A stretch of DNA of 64,000 nucleotides from Streptomyces luteolifulvus (lineage in GTDB: Bacteria; Actinomycetota; Actinomycetes; Streptomycetales; Streptomycetaceae): NCBI RefSeq assembly GCF_008806595.1, contig NZ_VZRB01000001.1, positions 62,001 through 126,000 on the forward strand, given 5' to 3'. The notes under the pieces are model-generated. The model saw only the letters and a list, made by a program, of their open reading frames with translations, had not been told where the DNA came from and did not search any database. The position numbers were made by a program, and so were the translations under genes. Below, piece after piece: positions 23,088-37,034 of this stretch (position 1 is the stretch's first letter; every line of letters begins with the position of its first letter).

Positions 23088-23656
23088 GAGTCTGGTCCCT
23101 CTCGTCCGGTGGACCGCCCGCCCCTGGGCGGCCCGGTTCTGTGTCCCGGTTCGAAAGGGGGGTTCTCACCCAGGTCATGACGGAAGGGTTCTCCGTGCAC
23201 GTCGGGTGAGCTGGCAAAGCTGGCCGTCTGCCGGACAACGGCAGCCGGTCTCGCGGCACGACTCGGTCACCTGTGCGGTCACCGAGCACGGCACCCCCCT
23301 ACCGCGCCCCGCGCCGGGTTCCGTCGCGGTCCTTGAGCCCTCCCCTTGAGCCGCTTGCTGACGGACCGATGCGGGTGAGATGTACGACGGTATTGATGAT
23401 TGAGCACTTATGGCAAGACCTGGAACAAGGCCTCACGTTTTCGTTGATTTGACCGTTACAGCGTGGTGATTCTCCCCACCTTGACCGGATTTCCCCCATC
23501 CGTTTGACGGCACGGGCGAAGGCGCGTCCATGTCGCGCAGCCCCGTGCGGGCCGTCAAGTACCGAAAGAGCCGAAAAGTCTTGGCATGGACACTTCCCGT
23601 CAACACAGGTGATTGCTACGACGGTTGTGGCAGAGATCCTGCTAAAGGGAGGTTCC
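23088..23656. other. long divergent intergenic region
   Basis: About 570 bases separate the divergent glycosyltransferase operon and SGNH lipase gene. The stretch 23380-23480 is unusually AT-rich for this genome and contains TTGACC and TTGATT hexamers that could be promoter elements; a second candidate promoter region (CTTGGCATGGACAC, near 23580) lies closer to the lipase. No credible coding frame was found on either strand. Confidence 0.5.
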
Positions 23657-24463
23657 ATGAGACGTTCCCGACTTTTCGCATACGTCAGCTCACTCCTCCT
23701 TGCCGCCGGTGCCGTCCTCACCGGGACCACCGCGGCACAGGCGTCCCAACTCGCCGCAACCGGCGGGTACGTGGCCCTCGGCGACTCCTACTCCTCCGGA
23801 GTCGGCGCGGGCAGCTACATCGGCTCCAGCGGCGACTGCAAGCGCAGCACGAAGGCCTATCCCTACCTCTGGGCCGCCGCCCATTCACCCTCGTCGTTCG
23901 CCTTCACCGCCTGCTCGGGCGCTCGTACGGGTGATGTTCTGTCCGGTCAGCTGGGCCCGCTCAACTCCGCCACCGCCTTCGTCTCCATCTCCATCGGTGG
24001 CAACGACGCCGGCTTCTCCGACGTCATGACGACCTGCGTGCTCCAGTCCAACAGCTCCTGCCTGTCCCGGATCGCCACCGCGAAGGCGTACGTCGACTCG
24101 ACGCTCCCCGGCAAGCTCGACAGCGTCTACTCGGCGATCCGCGCCAAGGCACCGTCCGCCCGGGTCGTCGTACTCGGCTACCCCCGCTTCTACAAGCTCG
24201 GCACCACCTGCGTCGGCCTGTCCGAGACCAAGCGGAAGGCGATCAACGACGCGGCCGACTACCTCGACACCGCCATCGCCAAGCGGGCCGCGAACCACGG
24301 CTACGCCTACGGCGACGTCCGCACCACCTTCACCGGTCATGAGATCTGCTCCGGCAGCTCCTGGCTGCACAGCCTCAACTGGCTCAACATCGGCGAGTCG
24401 TACCACCCGACCGCGGGCGGCCAGTCCGGCGGCTATCTGCCCGTGCTGAGCAGCCTCGACTGA
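23657..24463 (+). CDS. secreted SGNH/GDSL lipase
   Basis: 268 residues. Signal peptide 1-29 (AQA region), then an SGNH hydrolase: Ser44 in GDSYSSG, Gly and Asn116 in GGND, His250 with Asp-type HPTAGGQ block V. Six cysteines (61, 86, 127, 135, 185, 231) suit the three disulfides of actinomycete lipases of this class; it resembles the structurally known Streptomyces SGNH lipase. AGGGAGG before the ATG at 23657 sets the start. It ends three bases from the convergent kinase gene. Confidence 0.93.
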   Translation: MRRSRLFAYVSSLLLAAGAVLTGTTAAQASQLAATGGYVALGDSYSSGVGAGSYIGSSGDCKRSTKAYPYLWAAAHSPSSFAFTACSGARTGDVLSGQLGPLNSATAFVSISIGGNDAGFSDVMTTCVLQSNSSCLSRIATAKAYVDSTLPGKLDSVYSAIRAKAPSARVVVLGYPRFYKLGTTCVGLSETKRKAINDAADYLDTAIAKRAANHGYAYGDVRTTFTGHEICSGSSWLHSLNWLNIGESYHPTAGGQSGGYLPVLSSLD

Positions 24464-24466
24464 GAC

Positions 24467-26074
24467 TCAGGAGGTCGGAGAAGCGGAACCAGAGGGGGAG
24501 GCCCCGCCCGTCGGGGTCTCCGCCACACAGGTCACCGAGAACGGGACCTCGTTGGAGGTCGTGCGCACCGGGTCCCGTACCTCGACACTGATCGCGTTCC
24601 GGAACGTCCCGGTCTCGTCGTACGTCGTCACGAACGCCTGATCCTGCTGGGTCCGCCCGCCGCCCGCCGGGAAGGACAACGTCTTCCAGCCCTGATCCAT
24701 GACCTGGCCGTCCCGCGACACCCACCGATAGCTCACCTGCGCCGGCAGCCGGCCCACCGTGATGGTCGCCGTGAACGCCGGTGCCTGACCGCTCGGCGGG
24801 GGGCAGGTGCCGGAGTAGTCCGTGTGCGCGCCGGTCACGCTGACCCCGACGGTCTGCGGCGGAGCGCTCGACGGGCCGGAGCTCTTGCTGGGGGAGGGGG
24901 CGGGGCCCCCGCCCTTCGGTGTGCTCTCCTCGGTCGCGGGGGTCGAACTCACCCCGGCGCTCCTGCTCTTGCTCGCAGTGCCGCCGTTCCCGCCGTCGTC
25001 GCGGTTCAGCAGGGCGTACGTCAGCCCGGCGATCGCCAGCGCCAGCGCGGCCAGGCCGGCGACCAGCACGACGGCCGCCCGGCGGTTGCGGTCCGGTCCG
25101 GCCGTCGTCGGAGTGGTCGTCGCGACGGGCGAGCGCTGCGTCCTCGCGGTCGGCAGCGGCATCGGGGGCGTCGGCGACGGCTGCTCCGGATGACCCGCGA
25201 ACGTCGGTGTGTACGGCGTCGTCCGCACCGTGTCGGCCCGGGGCGAGCCGCCCGCGCCGACGATCCGCAGATCCTGCTCGGCCCGGTCGGCCGGCAGCCG
25301 CTCGGCCGGGTCCTTGCGCAGCAGACCCTCGATCACCGGGGCGAGCGGACCCGCCCGGCGCGGTGGCGGCAGCTCCTCGTCGACGATCGCGCGCAGGGTG
25401 CTGAGCGGAGTGTTCTGGCGGAACGGGGAGTTGCCCTCGACCGCCGCGTACAGCAGCACACCGAGCGACCACAGGTCGGACTCGGGACCCGGCGTACGGC
25501 CCAGCGCCCGTTCCGGCGCGAGGAACTCGGGCGAGCCGATGACCTCGCCGGTCATGGTCAGCGCGGAACTGCCCTCGACCATGGCGATCCCGAAGTCGGT
25601 GAGCACCACCCGGCCGTCGTTCGACAACAGGACGTTGGCCGGCTTCACGTCCCGGTGCAGCACCCCTGCCGCGTGGGCGGCCCGCAACGCGGCGAGCACC
25701 TCGGCACCGATGTGCGCTGCGCGCCGGGGATCGAGCGGGCCCTCCGCGTCCAGCAGATCGGCCAGGGACAGGCCGGGGACCAGCTCCATCACGATCCAGG
25801 GGCGGCCGTCCTGGGTGGCCACGTCGTACACCGTCACCACATTGCGGTCGGCGACCCGGGCAGCCGCCCACGCCTCGCGCTCCAGCCGGGCGTACATCCG
25901 CTCGACATCACCGGCCGGCAGCCCGGCCGGGGCGCGCACCTCTTTGACGGCCACCTCGCGGTGCAGCACCTCGTCGCGGGCGCGCCACACGGTTCCCATG
26001 CCGCCCTCGCCGAGCGGGGCGAGAAGACGGTAGCGGCCGGCGATCAGACGTTCACTGCCCGGTTCTTCGGACAC
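24467..26074 (-). CDS. transmembrane Ser/Thr protein kinase
   Basis: 535 residues. PknB-type kinase domain 14-270 with GEGGMGTVW loop, Lys44, HRDVKPANVLL (Asp142) and DFG at 160-162, so it should be active. A Pro/Thr-rich juxtamembrane part, one membrane helix (333-356), a Ser/Pro linker, and an extracellular roughly 130-residue domain (VGVSVTGAHTDYSGTCP onward) follow; there are no PASTA repeats. The extracellular part resembles Ig-like domains. Start GTG at 26074. Confidence 0.92.
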   Translation of the reverse strand: MSEEPGSERLIAGRYRLLAPLGEGGMGTVWRARDEVLHREVAVKEVRAPAGLPAGDVERMYARLEREAWAAARVADRNVVTVYDVATQDGRPWIVMELVPGLSLADLLDAEGPLDPRRAAHIGAEVLAALRAAHAAGVLHRDVKPANVLLSNDGRVVLTDFGIAMVEGSSALTMTGEVIGSPEFLAPERALGRTPGPESDLWSLGVLLYAAVEGNSPFRQNTPLSTLRAIVDEELPPPRRAGPLAPVIEGLLRKDPAERLPADRAEQDLRIVGAGGSPRADTVRTTPYTPTFAGHPEQPSPTPPMPLPTARTQRSPVATTTPTTAGPDRNRRAAVVLVAGLAALALAIAGLTYALLNRDDGGNGGTASKSRSAGVSSTPATEESTPKGGGPAPSPSKSSGPSSAPPQTVGVSVTGAHTDYSGTCPPPSGQAPAFTATITVGRLPAQVSYRWVSRDGQVMDQGWKTLSFPAGGGRTQQDQAFVTTYDETGTFRNAISVEVRDPVRTTSNEVPFSVTCVAETPTGGASPSGSASPTS

Positions 26075-26176: not shown

Positions 26177-27868
26177 TCAGCCGAGTGCGGATGCCGCCCC
26201 CTTGAGCACCAATCCGGCCCCGAGGGCCACCACGACCAGCGCCGACGCCAGGGGTGTGGTCCTGCGCAGCAGCACTGCCGCGCGGCCGGTGCTCCAGCGG
26301 GAACGCCGGTCCAGCATCCGGGTCATGCCCGTACCCAGCTTGACGACCGCGAAGCCGGCCGCGGTGAGGGTGAGGGCGAGCCCGACGCCGTACGCGATGA
26401 CGAGCAGCAGGCCGAACCACGCGTGGCCGAGGGCCGCGGCGCCGACGAGCACCACGACGGCGGACGGACTGGGCACGAGACCGCCGGCGAAGCCGAGGAG
26501 GATCGTGCCGCGGAGGGTGGGGGCGGTGGAGTGGGTGTGGGTGAAGCCGCCGTGGGTGTGTTCGACGGTGTGGTCGTGGTCGTGGTGGTGGTCGTGGCTT
26601 TGGCCGTGGTCGTGGTCGTGGTCCTGGCCGAGGGCGTGGGCGTGAGCGGGGGAGGGGGAGGTGGTGTGAGGCGTGTGGTCGGTGGACGCGGTGTGGCTGT
26701 GCGCGGCGACCAGGACCGGGGCGCGTTCGTGGGTGTGGTCGGCCTCGGGCGTGTGCGCGTGTTCGTGGGGATGCCCGTGCGGGTGGGAGTGCCCGCGGGA
26801 GTGCCCGTGGGAGTGACCGTGCCCGTGCGTGTGGGTCCGGTTGTGCCATGCCCGTCGTACGAGGGTGGCGCCCGCGAAGGTCACCAGGACGCCGCTCGCG
26901 ATGCCGAGCCAGGCGACGACCGAGGGCGCGGCGGCCGAACCGGCCGTGACCAGCAGGCCCAGGGCGACCACCCCCAGGGTGTGGGTGACCGTCACCGAGG
27001 CGGCCAGGGGCAGTACGTCCTTCAGCCGGGCCCGGCCGCCCCGCGCCGCCGCAGTCGCGGCCATGAGGGTCTTGCCGTGGCCCGGCGCGAGCGCGTGCAT
27101 CGCGCCCAGGGCCACGGCGATGAGCAGGGCCAGGGCGGCGAAGCCGACGGTGAGGTCGTGACGGGCGACCAGGGAGTCCAGGGCCCGGGTCCAGCGGTCG
27201 GCGCCGCGCGGCAGGACGGAGGCGGCGGGTGCGTCCTCCTGCTCCTCGGCCAGCGCCGGACCGCCGGGGCGCACGCGCACGGACGCGGTCGCGGTGTCGG
27301 CCGGGGAGGAGAGCAACTCCTCGGGGTAGCGGGTCAGTTCGCGGGACACCGACCTCTCGGGCACGTCCGACGCGGTGAGCGTCATACGGTCGCCGCGCGC
27401 GGTGATCTCCCGCCAGCCGGGGCCCGAGGAGGCGCCGGCGCTGTGGAATCCGAGGGTCACGCTGCCGGTGCTGGGCAGGGCGGCGGTCATACGGCATTCC
27501 ACCCGGAGGGTGTCGAGCCCGGCCTGCCCGGGCCGCACGCGCGCGTTGCTGCCCGTCACGGTGAGGGGCGTCGTACGCCCGTCGACGGTGACCTCGCTGT
27601 CCGCGGCGGCCTTCGCACAGCGCTGCCGGGCCCACTCGGCCGTGCCCAGCCGCTTCAGATCCGGCTTGGCCTGGGTCGCGGGGACCTCGGCGAGGTCCTC
27701 GACATGGTCCACGCGCAGCGTGCCGGGGGCGGCGACGAGACCGTCGTAGCGATTGACGGTGAAGTTGCCGAGGGGGTGGGCGCTCGCGGTCGCGGCGGGG
27801 AGAAGGGTGAGCGCGGCTGCGGCGGTGAGCACGGCCGCGCCGGAGGCGACCAGGCGTCGGGCCTTCAC
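26177..27868 (-). CDS. NicO-family nickel/cobalt transporter with periplasmic domain and His-rich loop
   Basis: 563 residues. Signal peptide 1-30 (cleavage ASA/H) leaves His31 (HPLGNFTVN) as mature N-terminus. A roughly 200-residue extracytoplasmic domain precedes six or so membrane helices beginning near 240. The NicO signature HALAPGHGK (258-266) is present. Between helices, residues 342-446 hold 35 histidines among 105. NicO proteins such as RcnA export nickel or cobalt; direction here is unproven. It overlaps the upstream TPR gene by ATGA (27865-27868), so they are one operon. The His-rich DNA is a low-complexity GTGGTCGTGG tract. Confidence 0.9.
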   Translation of the reverse strand: MKARRLVASGAAVLTAAAALTLLPAATASAHPLGNFTVNRYDGLVAAPGTLRVDHVEDLAEVPATQAKPDLKRLGTAEWARQRCAKAAADSEVTVDGRTTPLTVTGSNARVRPGQAGLDTLRVECRMTAALPSTGSVTLGFHSAGASSGPGWREITARGDRMTLTASDVPERSVSRELTRYPEELLSSPADTATASVRVRPGGPALAEEQEDAPAASVLPRGADRWTRALDSLVARHDLTVGFAALALLIAVALGAMHALAPGHGKTLMAATAAARGGRARLKDVLPLAASVTVTHTLGVVALGLLVTAGSAAAPSVVAWLGIASGVLVTFAGATLVRRAWHNRTHTHGHGHSHGHSRGHSHPHGHPHEHAHTPEADHTHERAPVLVAAHSHTASTDHTPHTTSPSPAHAHALGQDHDHDHGQSHDHHHDHDHTVEHTHGGFTHTHSTAPTLRGTILLGFAGGLVPSPSAVVVLVGAAALGHAWFGLLLVIAYGVGLALTLTAAGFAVVKLGTGMTRMLDRRSRWSTGRAAVLLRRTTPLASALVVVALGAGLVLKGAASALG

Positions 27869-29874
27869 TGGGCGGCCTCCAGTGCCTTACGGGCCTCGCG
27901 GGCGCCGAGCGGCGAGAAGCCGGGGTTCAGCTTCAGGGCGGATCGCAGCGAGGTGCGGGCTTCCTTGTCGTGGCCCGTGGCGCGTTCGATCACTCCGCGG
28001 TGGTAGAGGAAGGACGCGTTGCGGTAGCCGGTGGCCGTGGCCCGACGGGCGTAGGGCAGGGCTTCCGTGTCGCGGCCGTTGACGTGCAGCGCCCAGGCGA
28101 GGGCGTCCGCGGTGTGCACCGTGTGGCGGCGGGCCCACTCGGCGCGGGCCGCGCGCAGGGCGGCCCGCTTGTCGCCGTGGTCGGCGGCGGCGAGCGCGGT
28201 GTCGAGGTCGGCGTTGACGCCGTTGGCGCGGGCGAGGGCCGTCCACGCGTCGACGAGGGCGTACTGGGCCTCGGCCTTCTCCCGGTCGCCCGCCGCGCCG
28301 CGGTCCTCGTACAACTCGCCGAGTTCGACGAGCGGGCCGGGCAGCGGAGAGCGGGAGACGACGTCCTCCATGCCCTTGATCGCGGCGGCCCGGTCGCCGC
28401 TCGCGGACCGGGCGCGGGCACGGCCCTCCAGGGCGGGAAGGTAGTTCTCGTCGGCGGCGAGTGCGCGCGCGTAGTAATTCAAGGCGGTCCCGTAGTCGCC
28501 CTGGTTCCAGGCGAGCTGGCCGAGGGCGGTGGCCACGTAGGCGATGTCTCCGGGGGTGGCGGCGGTGGCGAGGGCGCGTTCCAGGACGCTGCGGGCGGTG
28601 CGGACGTCGCCGCGCAGTTCGTGCACGTACGCGTACCGCGTGAAGACCGGGACGCCCGGCCGCCGTGAGTCGGCGGTGACCGCGGCCTTCGACGCCTCGT
28701 CGTAGCGGCCGAGTTCGACGAGAGCGTCGATGCGGGAACACAGGGCGCGCTCGCTGTAGGGGTTCTGCTCGAGGGCCTGCTCGGCGTGGGCGAGGGCGTT
28801 GTTGAAGTCGTGCCGGGCCGCGGCGAGGGCGGCGCGGCCGGCGAGGGCCTGCTCGTTGTCCGGCTGCAGGGCGAGGGAGCGCTTGAGAGCCCGCTCGGCC
28901 TGCGGGTAACGGGCGGGGTCGCCCTTCGTACGGGCCTGCTCGACATAGGCGAGGCCGAGGGTGGCCCAGCTGCCGAAGTCCTTGGGCTGGGCACGGAGAT
29001 GCGTCTGCAGTGCGCTGATGCTCGCGTCGAGATCACCGCTGGACAGCAGCGCGGGGGACATGGCGTTGGGCGCCGCCGCGACAGCGGCCGTCCGGCCACC
29101 GTCCCGCACGGCCCCGACCGCGATGGAGCCGGCGGTGAGCGCGACGGCCAACAGCACGGCACACCCGGCAAGATGAGCCACCCGCCACCGCCGCCCGGCC
29201 GCCCCGACCCGCCGCACGGCGACAACACGCGGATCGATCTCCACGTCGCCGCCTGCGGCGGACGTCACCGGATGCTCGCCGTCGGCCACGGCGCCAGGCG
29301 TTTCGTCCTGCTCCCCGGTCGGCTCGGTGGCCGACTGGGCGCCGCCCTGCTCGGCTTGCGGCCTGCTGCCCGGCGTGTTGTTGCGCTTGCCTGTCGGCCC
29401 GGCGGGCGGTGGGTTGTTGGGGTTGTCCTCGGGGCCTGCGCCGGGTCGCCTGTCGTGGCTGCGGTCCGGGGCCGCGGTCGGTCGGTTGTGGTGCCCGCTG
29501 TCCGTCCGCGTGGCCGCGGCCGTGCCGCGTTCGTGCTGTATGGGTGTGGTCGACTGGGCGCCGTGCTCGGCCTGCGGCCCGGCGTCCGGGGTGTTGTCGT
29601 GCTCGCCCGTCGCTCCGGCGGATGGTGTCGTGTCGTGGTTGCCTGGCGTGCTTGCGTCCGATTGCTCGTCGCGCCTGCTCTCCAGGCCTCCGGTCGGTCC
29701 GTTGCTCTGTTCGCCTGTGCGTTCGGTACCGGGCGTCTTGTCGAGCCCGTTCTCCGGCCGTGTCGCCGAGCCCGTGCTGGTGCCGCCCACGCCTGCCGAG
29801 GTCGGGGCCGGGCCGCGTTTGCGCTGGGGGCCGGGCTTGCTCTCCGGGGCGCTGGGGGTCGTACGCGGGGCCAT
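27865..29874 (-). CDS. membrane-anchored TPR protein
   Basis: 669 residues. A very hydrophilic, low-complexity N-terminus (1-215) with loose repeats of GEHDNTP and PQAEHGAQ type, one membrane helix near 230-255, then a C-terminal array of about eight tetratricopeptide repeats (for example LQPDNEQALAGRAALAAARHD). With a cytoplasmic N-terminus the TPR part would be outside. It is coupled by ATGA to the NicO transporter and sits directly downstream of the DUF4331 gene, so it may scaffold that pair. The N-terminal linker could be variable between strains. Confidence 0.85.
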   Translation of the reverse strand: MAPRTTPSAPESKPGPQRKRGPAPTSAGVGGTSTGSATRPENGLDKTPGTERTGEQSNGPTGGLESRRDEQSDASTPGNHDTTPSAGATGEHDNTPDAGPQAEHGAQSTTPIQHERGTAAATRTDSGHHNRPTAAPDRSHDRRPGAGPEDNPNNPPPAGPTGKRNNTPGSRPQAEQGGAQSATEPTGEQDETPGAVADGEHPVTSAAGGDVEIDPRVVAVRRVGAAGRRWRVAHLAGCAVLLAVALTAGSIAVGAVRDGGRTAAVAAAPNAMSPALLSSGDLDASISALQTHLRAQPKDFGSWATLGLAYVEQARTKGDPARYPQAERALKRSLALQPDNEQALAGRAALAAARHDFNNALAHAEQALEQNPYSERALCSRIDALVELGRYDEASKAAVTADSRRPGVPVFTRYAYVHELRGDVRTARSVLERALATAATPGDIAYVATALGQLAWNQGDYGTALNYYARALAADENYLPALEGRARARSASGDRAAAIKGMEDVVSRSPLPGPLVELGELYEDRGAAGDREKAEAQYALVDAWTALARANGVNADLDTALAAADHGDKRAALRAARAEWARRHTVHTADALAWALHVNGRDTEALPYARRATATGYRNASFLYHRGVIERATGHDKEARTSLRSALKLNPGFSPLGAREARKALEAAQ

Positions 29875-29962
29875 GCCCTCTCCTCGGTCGGATCGTGTGC
29901 TCGGGCGGCGCGGCCCGCGCCGTGGGGGATGGGTAGGTGCGGGCCGCGCCAGTCGGTGGGGA

Positions 29963-29993
29963 CGGCGGGCGGCCGAACCGGGGCCGCCCGCCG
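29963..29993. terminator. hairpin between DUF4331 and TPR genes
   Basis: A perfect 12-bp stem (29963-29974 with 29982-29993, CGGCGGGCGGCC arm) with a 7-base loop, ten bases after the DUF4331 stop. It may terminate or attenuate transcription before the TPR-NicO pair. Confidence 0.7.
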
Positions 29994-30003
29994 CGTGCGG
30001 GCC

Positions 30004-31536
30004 TCAGTACGCCCGGCCCCGCATCCGGCGCCACCACATCAGGCCTCCGCCGATCAGGAGGATGCCGAGCGCGCCGGCGCCCGCCGAGGCGGCGATCAGG
30101 GTGGTGTCGTCCGAGGTGCCCGCGCCGGCCGGCTGGAGCGCGTCGCCCAGCTGGTTGCGGACGTCGTTGCCGCCGCTGACGCCCTTGGCGAGCGCGCCAC
30201 GCGAACCCGCCGTCGGGTTGGCCAGGTACGGGAAGGACTTGCCGAACTTCTTGTCGTTCTTGTCGACCGCGTCGCCCAGGTCGTTCTTGGAACCGACCAG
30301 TTCGCCCTCGACGACCTGGAGCGAGGCGTCGATCACGTCGTCACTGAGCCGACGGCCGTTCGGGAAGCCCGCGTTGTCACCGTCCAGGACACCCAGCCGC
30401 TTGGGGCTGGCGGCCGGCTTGATGGATGTGTTGAGGCGCAGCTCCTCCGCCGGACGGACCTTCGGCGGCTGGTTGAGGCCCTTCACGCCCTTCAGGAACA
30501 CGTCGACGAGGTCGTTGCGCGGTTCGGCGGGCGCCTTGATCTTGTAGATCGCCTCGATGAGCTTCGGCAGCTCGGGGTTGGTCACGTTCTTCAGGAACTG
30601 GGCGTCGTCCCACGGCGCGGACGCGTTGAACTTGTCCTTGTCCTTGAGGGGGTTGACGACCTCGTTGACCAGCGGGTTGCCCAGACGCGAGACCTGCGCG
30701 TAGTACCCCTGCGCGTTCTTGCGCTGGGTGGTCGACCAGATGCCGACGATCGGCTGGTCGGACGACTCGGTGATCATGTCCGTCGGGACCTGAAGGGCGA
30801 TCGAGTTGACGTTGTAGCCCTTGAGGGTGTCGCGGCCGACCTCCGACAGGTTCCCGCCGTACAGCAGGTCGAAGACGCGCAGGTCCAGGAAGAACGGGTC
30901 GTCGGCCTGCCCGGCGAACGTCTTCGCGCCGTTGGTGAGCTTGTGGATCGCCTGCTTGCGCAGCGTGCTGTAGTCCGGCATCGACGCCTTGCCGACGTTC
31001 GACGGTGCCACCGGCACATCGTCGGCGATCTTCGTCGAGTGCGTCACCTTCTGGTTGCGCAGCTTGATCAGGTCGATGTCGTACGTCTGCGTGATGTTCA
31101 GGTCCGGGTCGTCCAGGCTGGTGACCGGACCCGTGTTGTACAGGAACGTCTTGTTGTTCTTCGTGTGCGTCTTGAAGGTGTAGCGGAAGAGCAGCTCACC
31201 CTGCGCGTCACCGTTGTTGTCGATGTGGAGGTCGTACTGCGCGTCCTCGGCGAACGTGAAGAAGTTCGGGCCGCCGGCGGGCTCCTCGAACGGGATCCAG
31301 TTCGCGACGATCGTCGTCGTGTCCGGGTGGTCCGGGCTGACGAAGGCGTACACGTCCGTGTTGTCGTACTGCGGGGTCCCCGAGATCAGCGGGGCCTCCC
31401 GGTGGCTGGAGGCGGAGGCCGCCCCCGGTTCGAGCGTGGCCACGCCGGCGGCTGCAAGCCCCCCGGCGGCCAGCGCGCCACAGATGAGGGTCGCGAGGCC
31501 CTTGCGTCCTGTGCCGCTCCTGGAGATAGGTGTCAT
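30004..31536 (-). CDS. DUF4331 secreted, membrane-anchored protein
   Basis: 510 residues. Signal peptide about 1-41, mature part starting near SSHREAPLISGTPQYDNTDVYAFVSPD, the hallmark of DUF4331, which fills almost the whole protein. A C-terminal hydrophobic segment (about 482-502) with WWRRMRGRAY tail anchors it. The family function is unknown. ATG at 31536 is chosen because a signal peptide starts there; the frame remains open another 540 bases upstream but that part crosses the divergent sigma factor gene. Divergent from the SigK/RskA pair, which probably controls it. Confidence 0.88.
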   Translation of the reverse strand: MTPISRSGTGRKGLATLICGALAAGGLAAAGVATLEPGAASASSHREAPLISGTPQYDNTDVYAFVSPDHPDTTTIVANWIPFEEPAGGPNFFTFAEDAQYDLHIDNNGDAQGELLFRYTFKTHTKNNKTFLYNTGPVTSLDDPDLNITQTYDIDLIKLRNQKVTHSTKIADDVPVAPSNVGKASMPDYSTLRKQAIHKLTNGAKTFAGQADDPFFLDLRVFDLLYGGNLSEVGRDTLKGYNVNSIALQVPTDMITESSDQPIVGIWSTTQRKNAQGYYAQVSRLGNPLVNEVVNPLKDKDKFNASAPWDDAQFLKNVTNPELPKLIEAIYKIKAPAEPRNDLVDVFLKGVKGLNQPPKVRPAEELRLNTSIKPAASPKRLGVLDGDNAGFPNGRRLSDDVIDASLQVVEGELVGSKNDLGDAVDKNDKKFGKSFPYLANPTAGSRGALAKGVSGGNDVRNQLGDALQPAGAGTSDDTTLIAASAGAGALGILLIGGGLMWWRRMRGRAY

Positions 31537-31767
31537 GCCGTCCGTCCTCAACGTGCCAACTTGCCTGACGAACGCCATTCGGAGCGGCCGGCAGGGTGGA
31601 TTGGTCGAATCCCAAACGTTCTTACGTCGCGTCCCGAAACTTGTTTCATCGCCGGGCGACCCGCTTTTTCGGCAGGCTGATCCGTAACCCCATCCGGAGG
31701 CACACTCGTTGCGAATGCCTCGTGTGACGGGACGGGCCGTGTGCGGCCCACTGAGAGGGGGACCGAG
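31537..31767. promoter_or_regulatory. divergent promoter region of DUF4331 and sigma-factor genes
   Basis: This 230-base stretch separates the DUF4331 gene and the sigma gene. It is relatively AT-rich around 31605-31665 (CAAACGTTCTTACGTCGCG). Both transcripts must start here; a SigK autoregulated promoter is a reasonable guess, but I cannot point to a certain -35/-10 pair. Confidence 0.45.
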
Positions 31768-32310
31768 TTGGAGGCGGACGAGCTTCTGGTGCTCGTGGCA
31801 GGCGGCGACCAGAAGGCATTCGAGGAGTTGTACGGACTGGTGTCCGGGCCGGTGTTCGGGCTCGTACGGCGCGTGGTGCGCGACCCGGCACAGTCCGAGG
31901 AGGTGGCCCAGGAAGTGCTGCTCGAACTCTGGCGGTCCGCCGCGCGGTTCGACCCCGGCCGGGGCAGTGCCCTGTCCTGGGTCCTCACCCTCGCCCACCG
32001 CCGGGCCGTGGACCGGGTGCGCAGTGCCCGCGCGGCGGGCGAACGCGAGCAGCGGGAGGCCCGGCGGGCTCATCACCCTGCCTTCGACCAGGTCTCCGAG
32101 GAGGTCGAGGCCGGTCTCGAACGCGAGTGGGTCCGCCGCTGTCTGGACCGGCTCACCGCCCTCCAGAGACAGTCCGTGACCCTCGCCTACTACGACGGCT
32201 ACACATACCGTGAAGTGGCCGAGCGGCTCTCCCTGCCGCTGGGCACGGTAAAGACCCGGATGCGCGACGGACTCACCCAGCTGCGCAAGTGCCTGGGAGG
32301 TGTCGCATGA
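31768..32310 (+). CDS. sigK: ECF sigma factor, SigK type
   Basis: 180 residues from TTG at 31768 (GAGAGGGGG site about 6-14 bases upstream); GTG at 31741 is an in-frame alternative. Region 2 (DQKAFEELYGLVSGPVFGLVRRVVRDPAQSEEVAQEVLLELWRSAARFD) and region 4 (LTALQRQSVTLAYYDGYTYREVAERLSLPLGTVKTRMRDGL) are complete. SigK-type sigma factors are held by RskA anti-sigma proteins, which is exactly the next gene, coupled by ATGA. Confidence 0.93.
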   Translation: MEADELLVLVAGGDQKAFEELYGLVSGPVFGLVRRVVRDPAQSEEVAQEVLLELWRSAARFDPGRGSALSWVLTLAHRRAVDRVRSARAAGEREQREARRAHHPAFDQVSEEVEAGLEREWVRRCLDRLTALQRQSVTLAYYDGYTYREVAERLSLPLGTVKTRMRDGLTQLRKCLGGVA

Positions 32311-33122
32311 GTTTCCGTCTGTTCCGGCGCGAGGACATCCATTCCCTCGCCGCGCCCTACGCCCTCGACGCCCTCGAACCCGGCGAGCGCGCCCGCTTCG
32401 AGAAGCACCTCAGGGGCTGCGGGAGCTGTGCCGCCGAGGTGCGGGACCTGTCCGAGGACGCCGTCCGTCTCGCCTGGTCGACCGCGGAACCGGCGCCGGC
32501 CGCGATGCGGGAACGGGTGCTGGCCGCCGTACGCACGACTCCGCAGGAGCTCGCCCCGCGCGACCCGGCGCGGGCGCGCGCTCCCCAGTTGCCGCCGCAT
32601 GTCTGGGGCACGCAGCCGCCGCCGGGGCGCACCCGTGCGCCCCGGTCGCGTCCCCTGTTCGTGCCGTTCGCCACCGCGACGGCCGCCGCGGCGCTCGTGG
32701 TCGCCTCACTCTTCGCCGTCCAGGCCGAGCGGACGCAGGACCAGCTGGACGCCGAGCGGGCCCAGGCACGTGAGATCGCCCACGTTCTCGCGGCTCCCGA
32801 CGCGCGGGCGGCCACCGGCGAGGAGGCCGGGGGCCGAAGTATCGGAGTGATCGCCTCCGCATCGGAGGGGCGCGCGGTCGTCACCCTGAGCGGATACAAC
32901 GCTCCGCCGAGCGGCAAAGTGCGCCAGCTGTGGCTCATGCGCCCGGGCGCGCAACCACGCTCCCTCGGGCTCTTCGAGAGCGACACGCCCTTGGTGGCAT
33001 CCGGTCTCTCCAAGTCGTCCACATCACTGGCTGTCACGGTCGAGCCCGACGGGGGCTCAGCACAGCCCACCACCCAGCCCGTTGTTCAACTCGCCCTGAA
33101 ATCAGTCGGATTCGAAGAGTAA
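32307..33122 (+). CDS. RskA-type transmembrane anti-sigma factor
   Basis: 271 residues. Zinc-binding anti-sigma domain with His34, Cys38 and Cys41 (HLRGCGSC), a single membrane helix (about 120-140) and an extracytoplasmic RskA C-terminal domain (ASEGRAVVTLSGYNAPPSGKVRQLWLMRPGAQPRSLG region). It should hold the preceding sigma factor at the membrane and release it on proteolysis. Start ATG at 32307 overlaps the sigma gene stop. Confidence 0.92.
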   Translation: MSFRLFRREDIHSLAAPYALDALEPGERARFEKHLRGCGSCAAEVRDLSEDAVRLAWSTAEPAPAAMRERVLAAVRTTPQELAPRDPARARAPQLPPHVWGTQPPPGRTRAPRSRPLFVPFATATAAAALVVASLFAVQAERTQDQLDAERAQAREIAHVLAAPDARAATGEEAGGRSIGVIASASEGRAVVTLSGYNAPPSGKVRQLWLMRPGAQPRSLGLFESDTPLVASGLSKSSTSLAVTVEPDGGSAQPTTQPVVQLALKSVGFEE

Positions 33123-35717: not shown

Positions 35718-37034
35718 TCAGTGCAAGGGGCGGAAGTGGCGCTCGAGCCCCTGCCAGACCTCGTCGTACCCCTGCTGAAGGTGCTCGGCGTGGGCCGCGG
35801 GGGGTGTCAGGGTGATCGGCCAGCGCGTCTCGAACATGAAGGCCAGTCCGTCGTCGATCTTCTGCGGCCTGAGCTCGGCGGCGCTTGCCCGGTCGAAGGT
35901 GTCCCGGTCCGGTCCGTGCGCCGACATCGTGTTGTGCAGCGAGCCGCCGCCCGGCACAAAGCCTTCCGCCTTCGCGTCGTACGCACCCTCGACCAGGCCC
36001 ATGTACTCGCTCATCACGTTCCGGTGGAAGTACGGCGGCCGGAAGGTGTCCTCGCCCACCAGCCAGCGTGGCGCGAAGACCACGAAGTCGACGCCGGCGA
36101 GGCCGGGGGTGTCGGACGGAGACGTCAGCACCGTGAAGATCGACGGGTCCGGGTGGTCGTAGCTGATGGTGCCGATCACATTGAAGCGGCGCAGATCGTA
36201 GGTGTACGGCACATGGTTGCCGTGCCAGGCGACCACGTCGAGCGGTGAGTGGTCGTAGGTGGCCGTCCACAGGTTGCCGCAGAACTTGTTCACCACCTCC
36301 ACCGGGCCCTCGACGTCCTCGTAGGCGGCGACGGGCGCGCGGAAGTCGCGGGCGTTGGCCAGCCCGTTGGCGCCGATCGGGCCGAGGTCGGGAAGCCGGA
36401 GGGCCGCCCCGTAGTTCTCGCACACATAGCCGCGGGCCGTGGCGTCCAGCAGCTCCACACGGAAGCGGACCCCACGCGGGATCAGCGCGATGTGTGAGGA
36501 CTCCACATGCAGCTGACCGAACTCGGTGTGCAGCAGCAGCCCGCCCTGCTCGGGGACGATCAGCAGCTCTCCGTCGGCGTCGCTGAAGACCCGGTCCATC
36601 GAGGAGGTGGCGTGGTACAGGTGCACGGCCATGCCGGCGCGCTGGGTCGCGTCGCCGTTGCCGCCCAGGGTCCACAGGCCCGCCAGGAAGTCCGTTCCCG
36701 CCGGGGGCTCGGGCAGGGGGTTCCACCGCAGCCGGTTCGGGTCGGGCACCGCCTCGTGGAAGGGAGCCGTGCGGAGCGCGCCGTTGTCGGTGCGGGTGAA
36801 CGCCGGGTGCGCGGCCGAGGGGCGGATGCGGTACAGCCACGAGCGGCGGTTGTGCGCCCTGGGCTCGGTGAACGCCGTCCCGCTGAGTTGCTCGGCGTAC
36901 AGCCCGAGGGGTGCCCGCTGCGGTGAGTTGCGGCCCTCGGGCAGTGCGCCCGGTACGGCCTCGGAGCTGTGCTCATTGCCGAAGCCGCTGAGGTATGCCA
37001 GGCCTTCCGCGGTCTTCCGCGCGTCCCCGCTCAT
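35718..37034 (-). CDS. hmgA: homogentisate 1,2-dioxygenase
   Basis: 438 residues, full length. Opens [26 protein letters not shown] and keeps iron ligands His and Glu in [11 protein letters not shown] and His in SAHGPD, as in the human enzyme. It opens the ring of homogentisate in tyrosine and phenylalanine breakdown, giving maleylacetoacetate. ATG at 37034. The next genes for the pathway (maleylacetoacetate isomerase, fumarylacetoacetase) are not beside it. A GntR gene follows 26 bases after its stop. Confidence 0.95.

What the first reader, a model, noticed from the sequence alone, without database searches (positions are those of the whole stretch)
26177..33122. DUF4331, extracytoplasmic TPR and His-loop NicO transporter next to SigK/RskA: a candidate undescribed envelope metal system
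Three minus-strand genes encode a secreted DUF4331 anchor protein, a surface TPR scaffold and a metal transporter coupled by ATGA. The divergent gene pair is an ECF sigma and its anti-sigma. All parts lie outside or in the membrane and have unknown roles individually. Together they suggest a regulated metal-export or cofactor-assembly machine.
Basis: partly seen in the sequence, partly recalled or inferred. Interest (0 to 1): 0.7.

Follow-up and report, generated by a model that had tools for sequence, protein, structure and literature searches.

The report
Likely copper-or-nickel capture relay under SigK
A Streptomyces-like bacterium carries a three-gene set, also found in a cyanobacterium and in proteobacteria, whose proteins are predicted to expose bare metal-gripping ends outside the cell and so likely catch copper or nickel and pass it to a membrane pump; it matters because the central protein family has no known job and the set would give the SigK stress switch something to control.

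The parts
30004..31536 (-). D: DUF4331 protein, 510 aa, predicted exported with a C-terminal membrane anchor; only DUF4331 match in the genome
   Evidence: PF14224 E 1.3e-162; single match; ATG with GAGGACG upstream
31402..31410 (-). Codons Ser43-Ser44-His45, predicted mature residues 1-3 (ATCUN register)
   Evidence: AxA|SSH; SSH in 159 and ASH in 2 of 161 D loci; S44, H45 invariant in a 41-row alignment
30019..30105 (-). Predicted C-terminal transmembrane anchor of D (residues 478-506)
   Evidence: helix 478-506 in the AF2 model, part of it low confidence; hydrophobic stretch followed by RRMRGRAY
27865..29874 (-). T: TPR protein, 669 aa, one hydrophobic stretch before the TPR part
   Evidence: TPR_14 E 3.4e-17; start ATG with GAGGAG upstream, GTGA overlap with N
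26177..27868 (-). N: His-loop permease with anglerase-like ectodomain, 563 aa
   Evidence: PF13386 28.1 bits over cut-off 24.9; RcnA-type model NF007454 78.9 bits, under its cut-off of 195
27260..27778 (-). N ectodomain, residues 31-203, predicted to start at His31 (mature His1)
   Evidence: His-Pro motif in 121 of 123 N frames, Ala directly before it in 120; fold match of residues 35-203 to Cu-bound 9GCE
26534..26836 (-). His-rich loop of N, residues 345-445, 33 His
   Evidence: pLDDT under 50 at 350-436
31577..31603 (-). SigK-type promoter site facing D: CAATCC-N15-CCGAAT, 40 nt before the ATG
31690..31716 (+). SigK-type promoter site facing sigK: CCATCC-N15-GCGAAT, 24 nt before the GTG
31741..32310 (+). 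sigK: ECF sigma factor K, Cys134 and Cys184 kept
   Evidence: NF007228 294 bits, cut-off 226; only one over the cut-off in the genome; Cys positions
32307..33122 (+). rskA: membrane anti-sigma-K factor, ATGA overlap with sigK
   Evidence: PF10099 110.6 bits; only RskA_C match in the genome
24467..26074 (-). Ser/Thr kinase gene behind N; possible operon member in near relatives
   Evidence: PF00069 E 8.3e-45; next to N in 12 of the 14 loci L055-L068

Best explanation
The three minus-strand genes are a conserved module, found in Actinomycetota, a cyanobacterium and Pseudomonadota, that likely works as an extracytoplasmic Cu(II)/Ni(II) capture relay: a DUF4331 protein predicted to end in a bare Ser-Ser-His hook, a TPR protein that would act as its docking scaffold, and a permease whose ectodomain is predicted to start with a metal-gripping histidine, all likely transcribed by SigK from promoter-like sites placed back to back. 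Shown by sequence or model: the module and its usual order, the X-X-His and His1 registers, the fold match of the ectodomain to a copper-bound domain, the two conserved SigK-type sites. Inferred, step by step: signal peptidase cuts before SSH and before H1; the DUF4331 tail binds Cu(II) or Ni(II); it hands the ion to His1 of the permease while TPR holds the two together; the permease moves the ion inward, its His loop buffering it; RskA releases SigK when the envelope needs or meets the metal. Copper is slightly favoured over nickel because the studied anglerase domains bind copper more tightly.
Against: 15 of 47 D genomes in the sample show no strong N (one, G269, has an N fragment at a contig end beside D; two, G204 and G058, hold cytosolic M-SSH forms), and those 15 plus G017 have no HupE_UreJ_2: D can serve without this permease. 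16 of 116 D-T-N loci have another order or mixed strands. N fails the HupE/UreJ-2 feature of described anglerases. The link between N and HupE ectodomains is weak (hhalign probability 9.9%, E 0.0032) and no PDB sequence matches the ectodomain. Four Rhodobacterales D genes sit beside type II secretion genes without TPR or permease. DUF4331 has no PDB match that would show a metal site. Cleavage sites are by the AxA rule only; Adhaeribacter D lacks a clean one. The SigK patterns were written after seeing the sites; with the narrower -10 (CGAAT only) 44 of 65 loci have the D-facing site, and 31 of 65 one facing SigK. Direction and metal are untested.
Confidence: 0.5

Rival explanations
1. Export and metalation: the permease is an RcnA-type exporter that pushes Ni, Co or Cu out and passes it to DUF4331, which buffers it or uses it as an enzyme cofactor; SigK answers metal excess.
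For: Closest curated transporter model is the RcnA nickel/cobalt efflux family (78.9 bits, below cut-off); long His loop; conserved charged residues across DUF4331.
Against: An ectodomain with a predicted N-terminal metal ligand is what the proposed uptake anglerases carry (PMC12537917); X-X-His is kept in cytosolic DUF4331 without T or N nearby.
Confidence: 0.25
2. DUF4331 is an envelope enzyme or structural protein whose N-terminal Ser-x-His serves folding or catalysis (for example an N-terminal nucleophile), and the permease neighbour only supplies its cofactor or shares a regulator.
For: Many invariant residues far from the N-terminus, such as PNGRR and RLGNPLVNE; D without strong N in 15 of 47 genomes.
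Against: Residue 1 varies (Ser, Ala, Gly, Pro) while residue 3 stays His; the SSH stretch lies in a low-confidence, probably flexible tail of the model, pLDDT under 50 at 24-45.
Confidence: 0.17
3. Ordinary gene neighbourhood: unrelated envelope genes kept together in Streptomyces, SigK controlling them as a general stress response.
For: The kinase and GDSL lipase beside the module are also kept in 12 of the 14 loci L055-L068.
Against: D and N recur together in 12 sampled family labels, and in other phyla without that kinase and lipase beside them.
Confidence: 0.05

Closest known systems
Anglerases Ang-1 and Ang-2 on HupE/UreJ-2 permeases (PMC12537917; abstract, passages and the whole of section 8 read)
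   Same: Predicted mature His1, beta-sandwich ectodomain with a fold match to 9GCE, fused to a multi-span metal permease.
   Different: Permease part is PF13386/RcnA-like instead of PF13795; a long His loop; genetic partners DUF4331 and TPR, which section 8 does not name among the anglerase neighbours.
mpt83-sigK-rskA cassette (PMC7509140; abstract, passages and Discussion read)
   Same: SigK with the two conserved Cys, adjacent RskA, a SigK-type site upstream of an exported protein gene.
   Different: The exported target is DUF4331-TPR-permease; no fasciclin (MPT83-like) gene was found in the genome.
RcnA/NicO nickel-cobalt transporters
   Same: HAxxPGHGK motif, His loop, second-half GGLxPSPSA motif (motif comparison recalled).
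   Different: Ectodomain of about 170 residues; below the RcnA cut-off; no Pfam NicO hit for this copy.
PcoB N-terminal His/Met region of copper efflux, described as ATCUN-like (PMC12509749; two passages read)
   Same: X-X-His type copper ligands near the N-terminus of an exported protein.
   Different: Several ATCUN-like motifs in a disordered region of an outer-membrane channel, not one X-X-His at the mature end of a protein family.

Membership tests
DUF4331 (PF14224) | Match over the Pfam gathering score | tested here: met
   542 bits, cut-off 27
ATCUN Cu(II)/Ni(II) proteins | His at mature position 3 | tested here: met
   Sequence register only, cleavage by the AxA rule: 161 of 161 D loci SSH or ASH (82 of them from a scan whose patterns include SSHREAP, 79 from the PF14224 profile); 117 of 120 listed cytosolic relatives start M/V-S-H-H
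ATCUN Cu(II)/Ni(II) proteins | Free alpha-amine and measured Cu/Ni binding | not testable with these tools
   needs N-terminal sequencing and spectroscopy
Anglerase (Ang-1/Ang-2) | Mature N-terminal His on a non-cytoplasmic domain | tested here: met
   By sequence rule: HPLGN in 119 of 123 N frames plus HPMGN and HPINN, Ala directly before in 120; two frames (L113, L122) without the motif
Anglerase (Ang-1/Ang-2) | Ectodomain fold of 9GCE | tested here: met
Anglerase (Ang-1/Ang-2) | C-terminal HupE/UreJ-2 (PF13795) permease | tested here: not met
   window N hits PF13386, not PF13795; so 'anglerase-like', not filed as an anglerase
Anglerase (Ang-1/Ang-2) | Nanomolar Cu2+ binding | not testable with these tools
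   -
RcnA/NicO | Curated model over cut-off | tested here: not met
   NF007454 78.9 bits against 195; PF03824 absent for this copy, but its Nostoc counterpart hits PF03824 at 44.3 bits, cut-off 27.7
SigK/RskA | SigK model over cut-off, adjacent RskA_C, conserved Cys pair | tested here: met
   Cys positions compared with Cys133/183 in a passage of PMC7509140
SigK/RskA | SigK recognises the promoter sites | not testable with these tools
   sites found and conserved; the mycobacterial consensus CCATCC-N15/16-CCGAAT behind the patterns is recalled, and a search for it in papers found none held
mpt83-sigK-rskA cassette | Fasciclin (MPT83-like) gene with the pair | tested here: not met
   no PF02469 match at E 0.001 in the genome

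The most novel reading that the evidence does not exclude
DUF4331 is a very large, undescribed family of one-site ATCUN metal carriers, exported or cytosolic, and DUF4331-TPR-permease is a phylum-spanning Cu(II)/Ni(II) acquisition machine in which the carrier docks on TPR and hands metal to a His1 'angler' domain that evolution has mounted on two different permeases (NicO/RcnA-like and HupE-like); RskA/SigK is its metal-status switch, which would supply the missing signal of SigK.
Probability: 0.38. Interest if true: 0.88.

Novelty: new variant of a known kind. Interest (0 to 1): 0.72.

Why it matters
A mature-end His3 kept in exported and cytosolic forms, by two different ways of making the N-terminus, turns an anonymous family into one with a cheap decisive test: metal binding by a short end peptide. 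The module links it to the newly described anglerases and gives SigK, whose signal is stated to be unknown (PMC7509140, Discussion read), a defined and possibly sole regulon in this genome, where metal can be tried as the inducer.

Tried and rejected

HupE profile (four sequences) against the Actinomycetota loci gave no hits, and PF13795 gave none in the 15 D-without-strong-N genomes plus G017: the idea that HupE replaces N there was dropped.

N against HupE by hhalign was weak: homology of the two ectodomains is not claimed as shown.

Other SigK sites: the remaining 5 of 7 genome matches have no convincing gene start behind them by eye; not counted as targets. Reversed control pattern: 1 match. 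The patterns were written after reading the two sites, and that was widened ([AT] in the -10), so conservation, not the match count, carries the argument.

N-terminal nucleophile hydrolase: disfavoured because residue 1 varies while residue 3 does not. The first regex for SigK presence was crude and was replaced by phmmer labels. In one search my duplicate filter dropped L225; recounted with it. In one search twelve Streptomyces rows first matched a spurious upstream His; rechecked, 120 of 120. One of 24 rows (L209:1092-1913) is an unrelated frame and was dropped. In one search one second fragment of the G013 N gene (267 bits) was left out of the 39 N places.

PHROGs: nothing useful.

Full report
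WHAT IS THERE. The window lies in an unnamed 9.03-Mb genome (G000); its DUF4331 protein is 84-90% identical to the named Streptomyces ones among the 120 listed hits, so I call it Streptomyces-like. On the minus strand D (DUF4331), T (TPR) and N (permease) follow each other; T and N overlap by GTGA. On the plus strand sigK and rskA overlap by ATGA. This genome has one DUF4331 match, one RskA_C, one SigK over the curated cut-off and no fasciclin match.

IT IS A MODULE. D (over 370 bits) occurs in 47 and strong N (over 250 bits) in 35 of 296 genomes drawn evenly from the phylum; 32 have both (Fisher p 5e-28, shared ancestry ignored; 12 family labels). Of 39 N places, 30 have a D, full or partial, on the same contig, all within 2.9 kb; the other 9 do not. 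Among 161 fetched D loci, 140 have at least 4.5 kb downstream: 57 carry T, N and SigK, 59 T and N, 15 T, 2 N, 7 none. Of the 116 with T and N, 100 read D-T-N on one strand, 6 D-T-N on mixed strands, 10 another order. These loci lean to Streptomyces, because the 80 named ones are the best matches of one scan. Fifteen of the 47 D genomes have no strong N; one of them (G269) has an N fragment at a contig end beside D, two (G204, G058) hold cytosolic forms, and none of the 15, nor G017, has HupE_UreJ_2.

OTHER PHYLA. A tblastn of plasmids (34 records) led to 16 fetched stretches, 13 of them annotated. In Comamonadaceae, Marinobacter, Pseudoalteromonas (two records) and Lichenicola (two) the order is D, in four of the six a small or Ig-like gene, one or two TPR or hypothetical genes, then HupE/UreJ. 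TPR is over the Pfam cut-off in Marinobacter and Pseudoalteromonas L197, below it in the Comamonadaceae and Lichenicola L198. Two unannotated Burkholderiales stretches (L251, L256) show A|SSH and, further on, a frame with A|H like HupE; a third (L253) shows A|ASH and no such frame. In Pseudoalteromonas an ECF sigma factor and an RskA_C anti-sigma factor stand directly before D. In Nostoc it is D, TPR, NicO. Adhaeribacter (Bacteroidota) and Miltoncostaea (Actinomycetota) show D and TPR. In four Rhodobacterales (Paracoccus, Sulfitobacter, Marinovum, Jannaschia) D sits beside type II secretion genes without TPR or permease in the stretch.

TWO N-TERMINAL MOTIFS. In exported D the signal peptide ends in Ala and Ser-Ser-His follows: of 161 D loci 159 read SSH and 2 ASH, with Ala at -1 in 156, Met in 3, Gly and Ser in one each. 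Of these, 82 came from a scan whose patterns include SSHREAP and are biased; the 79 found by the PF14224 profile alone give 78 SSH and 1 ASH. Among database proteins 120 of 120 listed Streptomyces ones and 120 of 120 found with a proteobacterial profile read SSHR after Ala or Gly. The three Met cases are long relatives without a signal peptide that would start M-SSHREAP (L094, L107, L225); they also have no T or N nearby. Short cytosolic relatives start M-S-H-H: 117 of 120 listed annotated starts exactly so, 3 a few residues earlier; in fetched loci M-S-N-H, M-S-D-H and M-P-D-H occur as well. Other exported branches read A|GGH (L219, L220) and A|SDH (Nostoc). Adhaeribacter has SSH without a clean AxA before it. 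Removal of Met before Ser or Pro is the known rule of methionine aminopeptidase (recalled). So His at position 3 of the mature chain is the common feature, which is the definition of an ATCUN site. The stretch lies in a low-confidence, probably flexible part of the model (residues 24-45 under pLDDT 50) and yet S44 and H45 are invariant in 41 sequences. For N the predicted mature end is His-Pro: HPLGN in 119 of 123 frames, two variants, Ala directly before in 120; two frames lack it.

CONTROL BY SIGK. Using a consensus that I recalled for mycobacterial SigK (not verified in a held paper) and after reading the region, CCATCC-N15-GCGAAT was found facing sigK (expected 0.01 in the window) and CAATCC-N15-CCGAAT facing D. 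The pattern made to cover both has 7 matches in the whole genome, these 2 included, with 1 for the reversed control; the other 5 have no convincing gene start behind them. Over 161 upstream regions, with the pattern widened by one position after, 59 of 65 with SigK next door have a site facing D (44 with the narrower form), 31 one facing SigK, 6 of 96 without SigK have the D-facing site, and 1 of 3220 shuffles does. SigK is on the opposite strand and upstream of D in 59 of the 65. In the profile-found loci alone it is 10 of 11 against 1 of 68. SigK keeps Cys134 and Cys184, the pair described for SigK in PMC7509140 (passages and Discussion read); that paper states that the signal is unknown.

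MECHANISM. I commit to a capture relay: DUF4331 holds Cu(II) or Ni(II) at a free X-X-His end, TPR brings it to the permease, His1 of the ectodomain takes the ion, the permease carries it inward and the His loop buffers it, SigK setting expression. Only anatomy, registers, fold match and sites are shown. Metal, hand-over and direction are inferred; export is the main rival.

VERDICT.

Noticed in passing
window 24467-26074 and 23504-24463: A Ser/Thr kinase with an extracytoplasmic-looking tail and a GDSL lipase flank the module and are kept with it in 12 of the 14 loci L055-L068, one of them from another genus (L058); beyond these the same search found only one weaker kinase hit, in L084.
   Followed up: partly
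L199, L202, L252, L255: In Rhodobacterales DUF4331 stands alone beside type II secretion genes, as if it were a substrate of that system.
   Followed up: no
L203-L222, L236-L241: Short cytosolic DUF4331 relatives with M-S-H-H, M-S-N-H, M-S-D-H or M-P-D-H starts are common in actinomycetes; their role is unknown.
   Followed up: partly
L219 and L220: A separate exported DUF4331 branch would begin Gly-Gly-His, the classic ATCUN peptide.
   Followed up: no
window 35718-37034; L197 1667-2971; L254 1-595: A homogentisate dioxygenase gene lies about 4-5 kb from DUF4331 both in the window (recognised by eye) and in Pseudoalteromonas; perhaps coincidence.
   Followed up: no
L250 10006-10665: A PEP-CTERM protein gene follows the D-TPR-NicO genes on the Nostoc plasmid; no Pfam match.
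   Followed up: no
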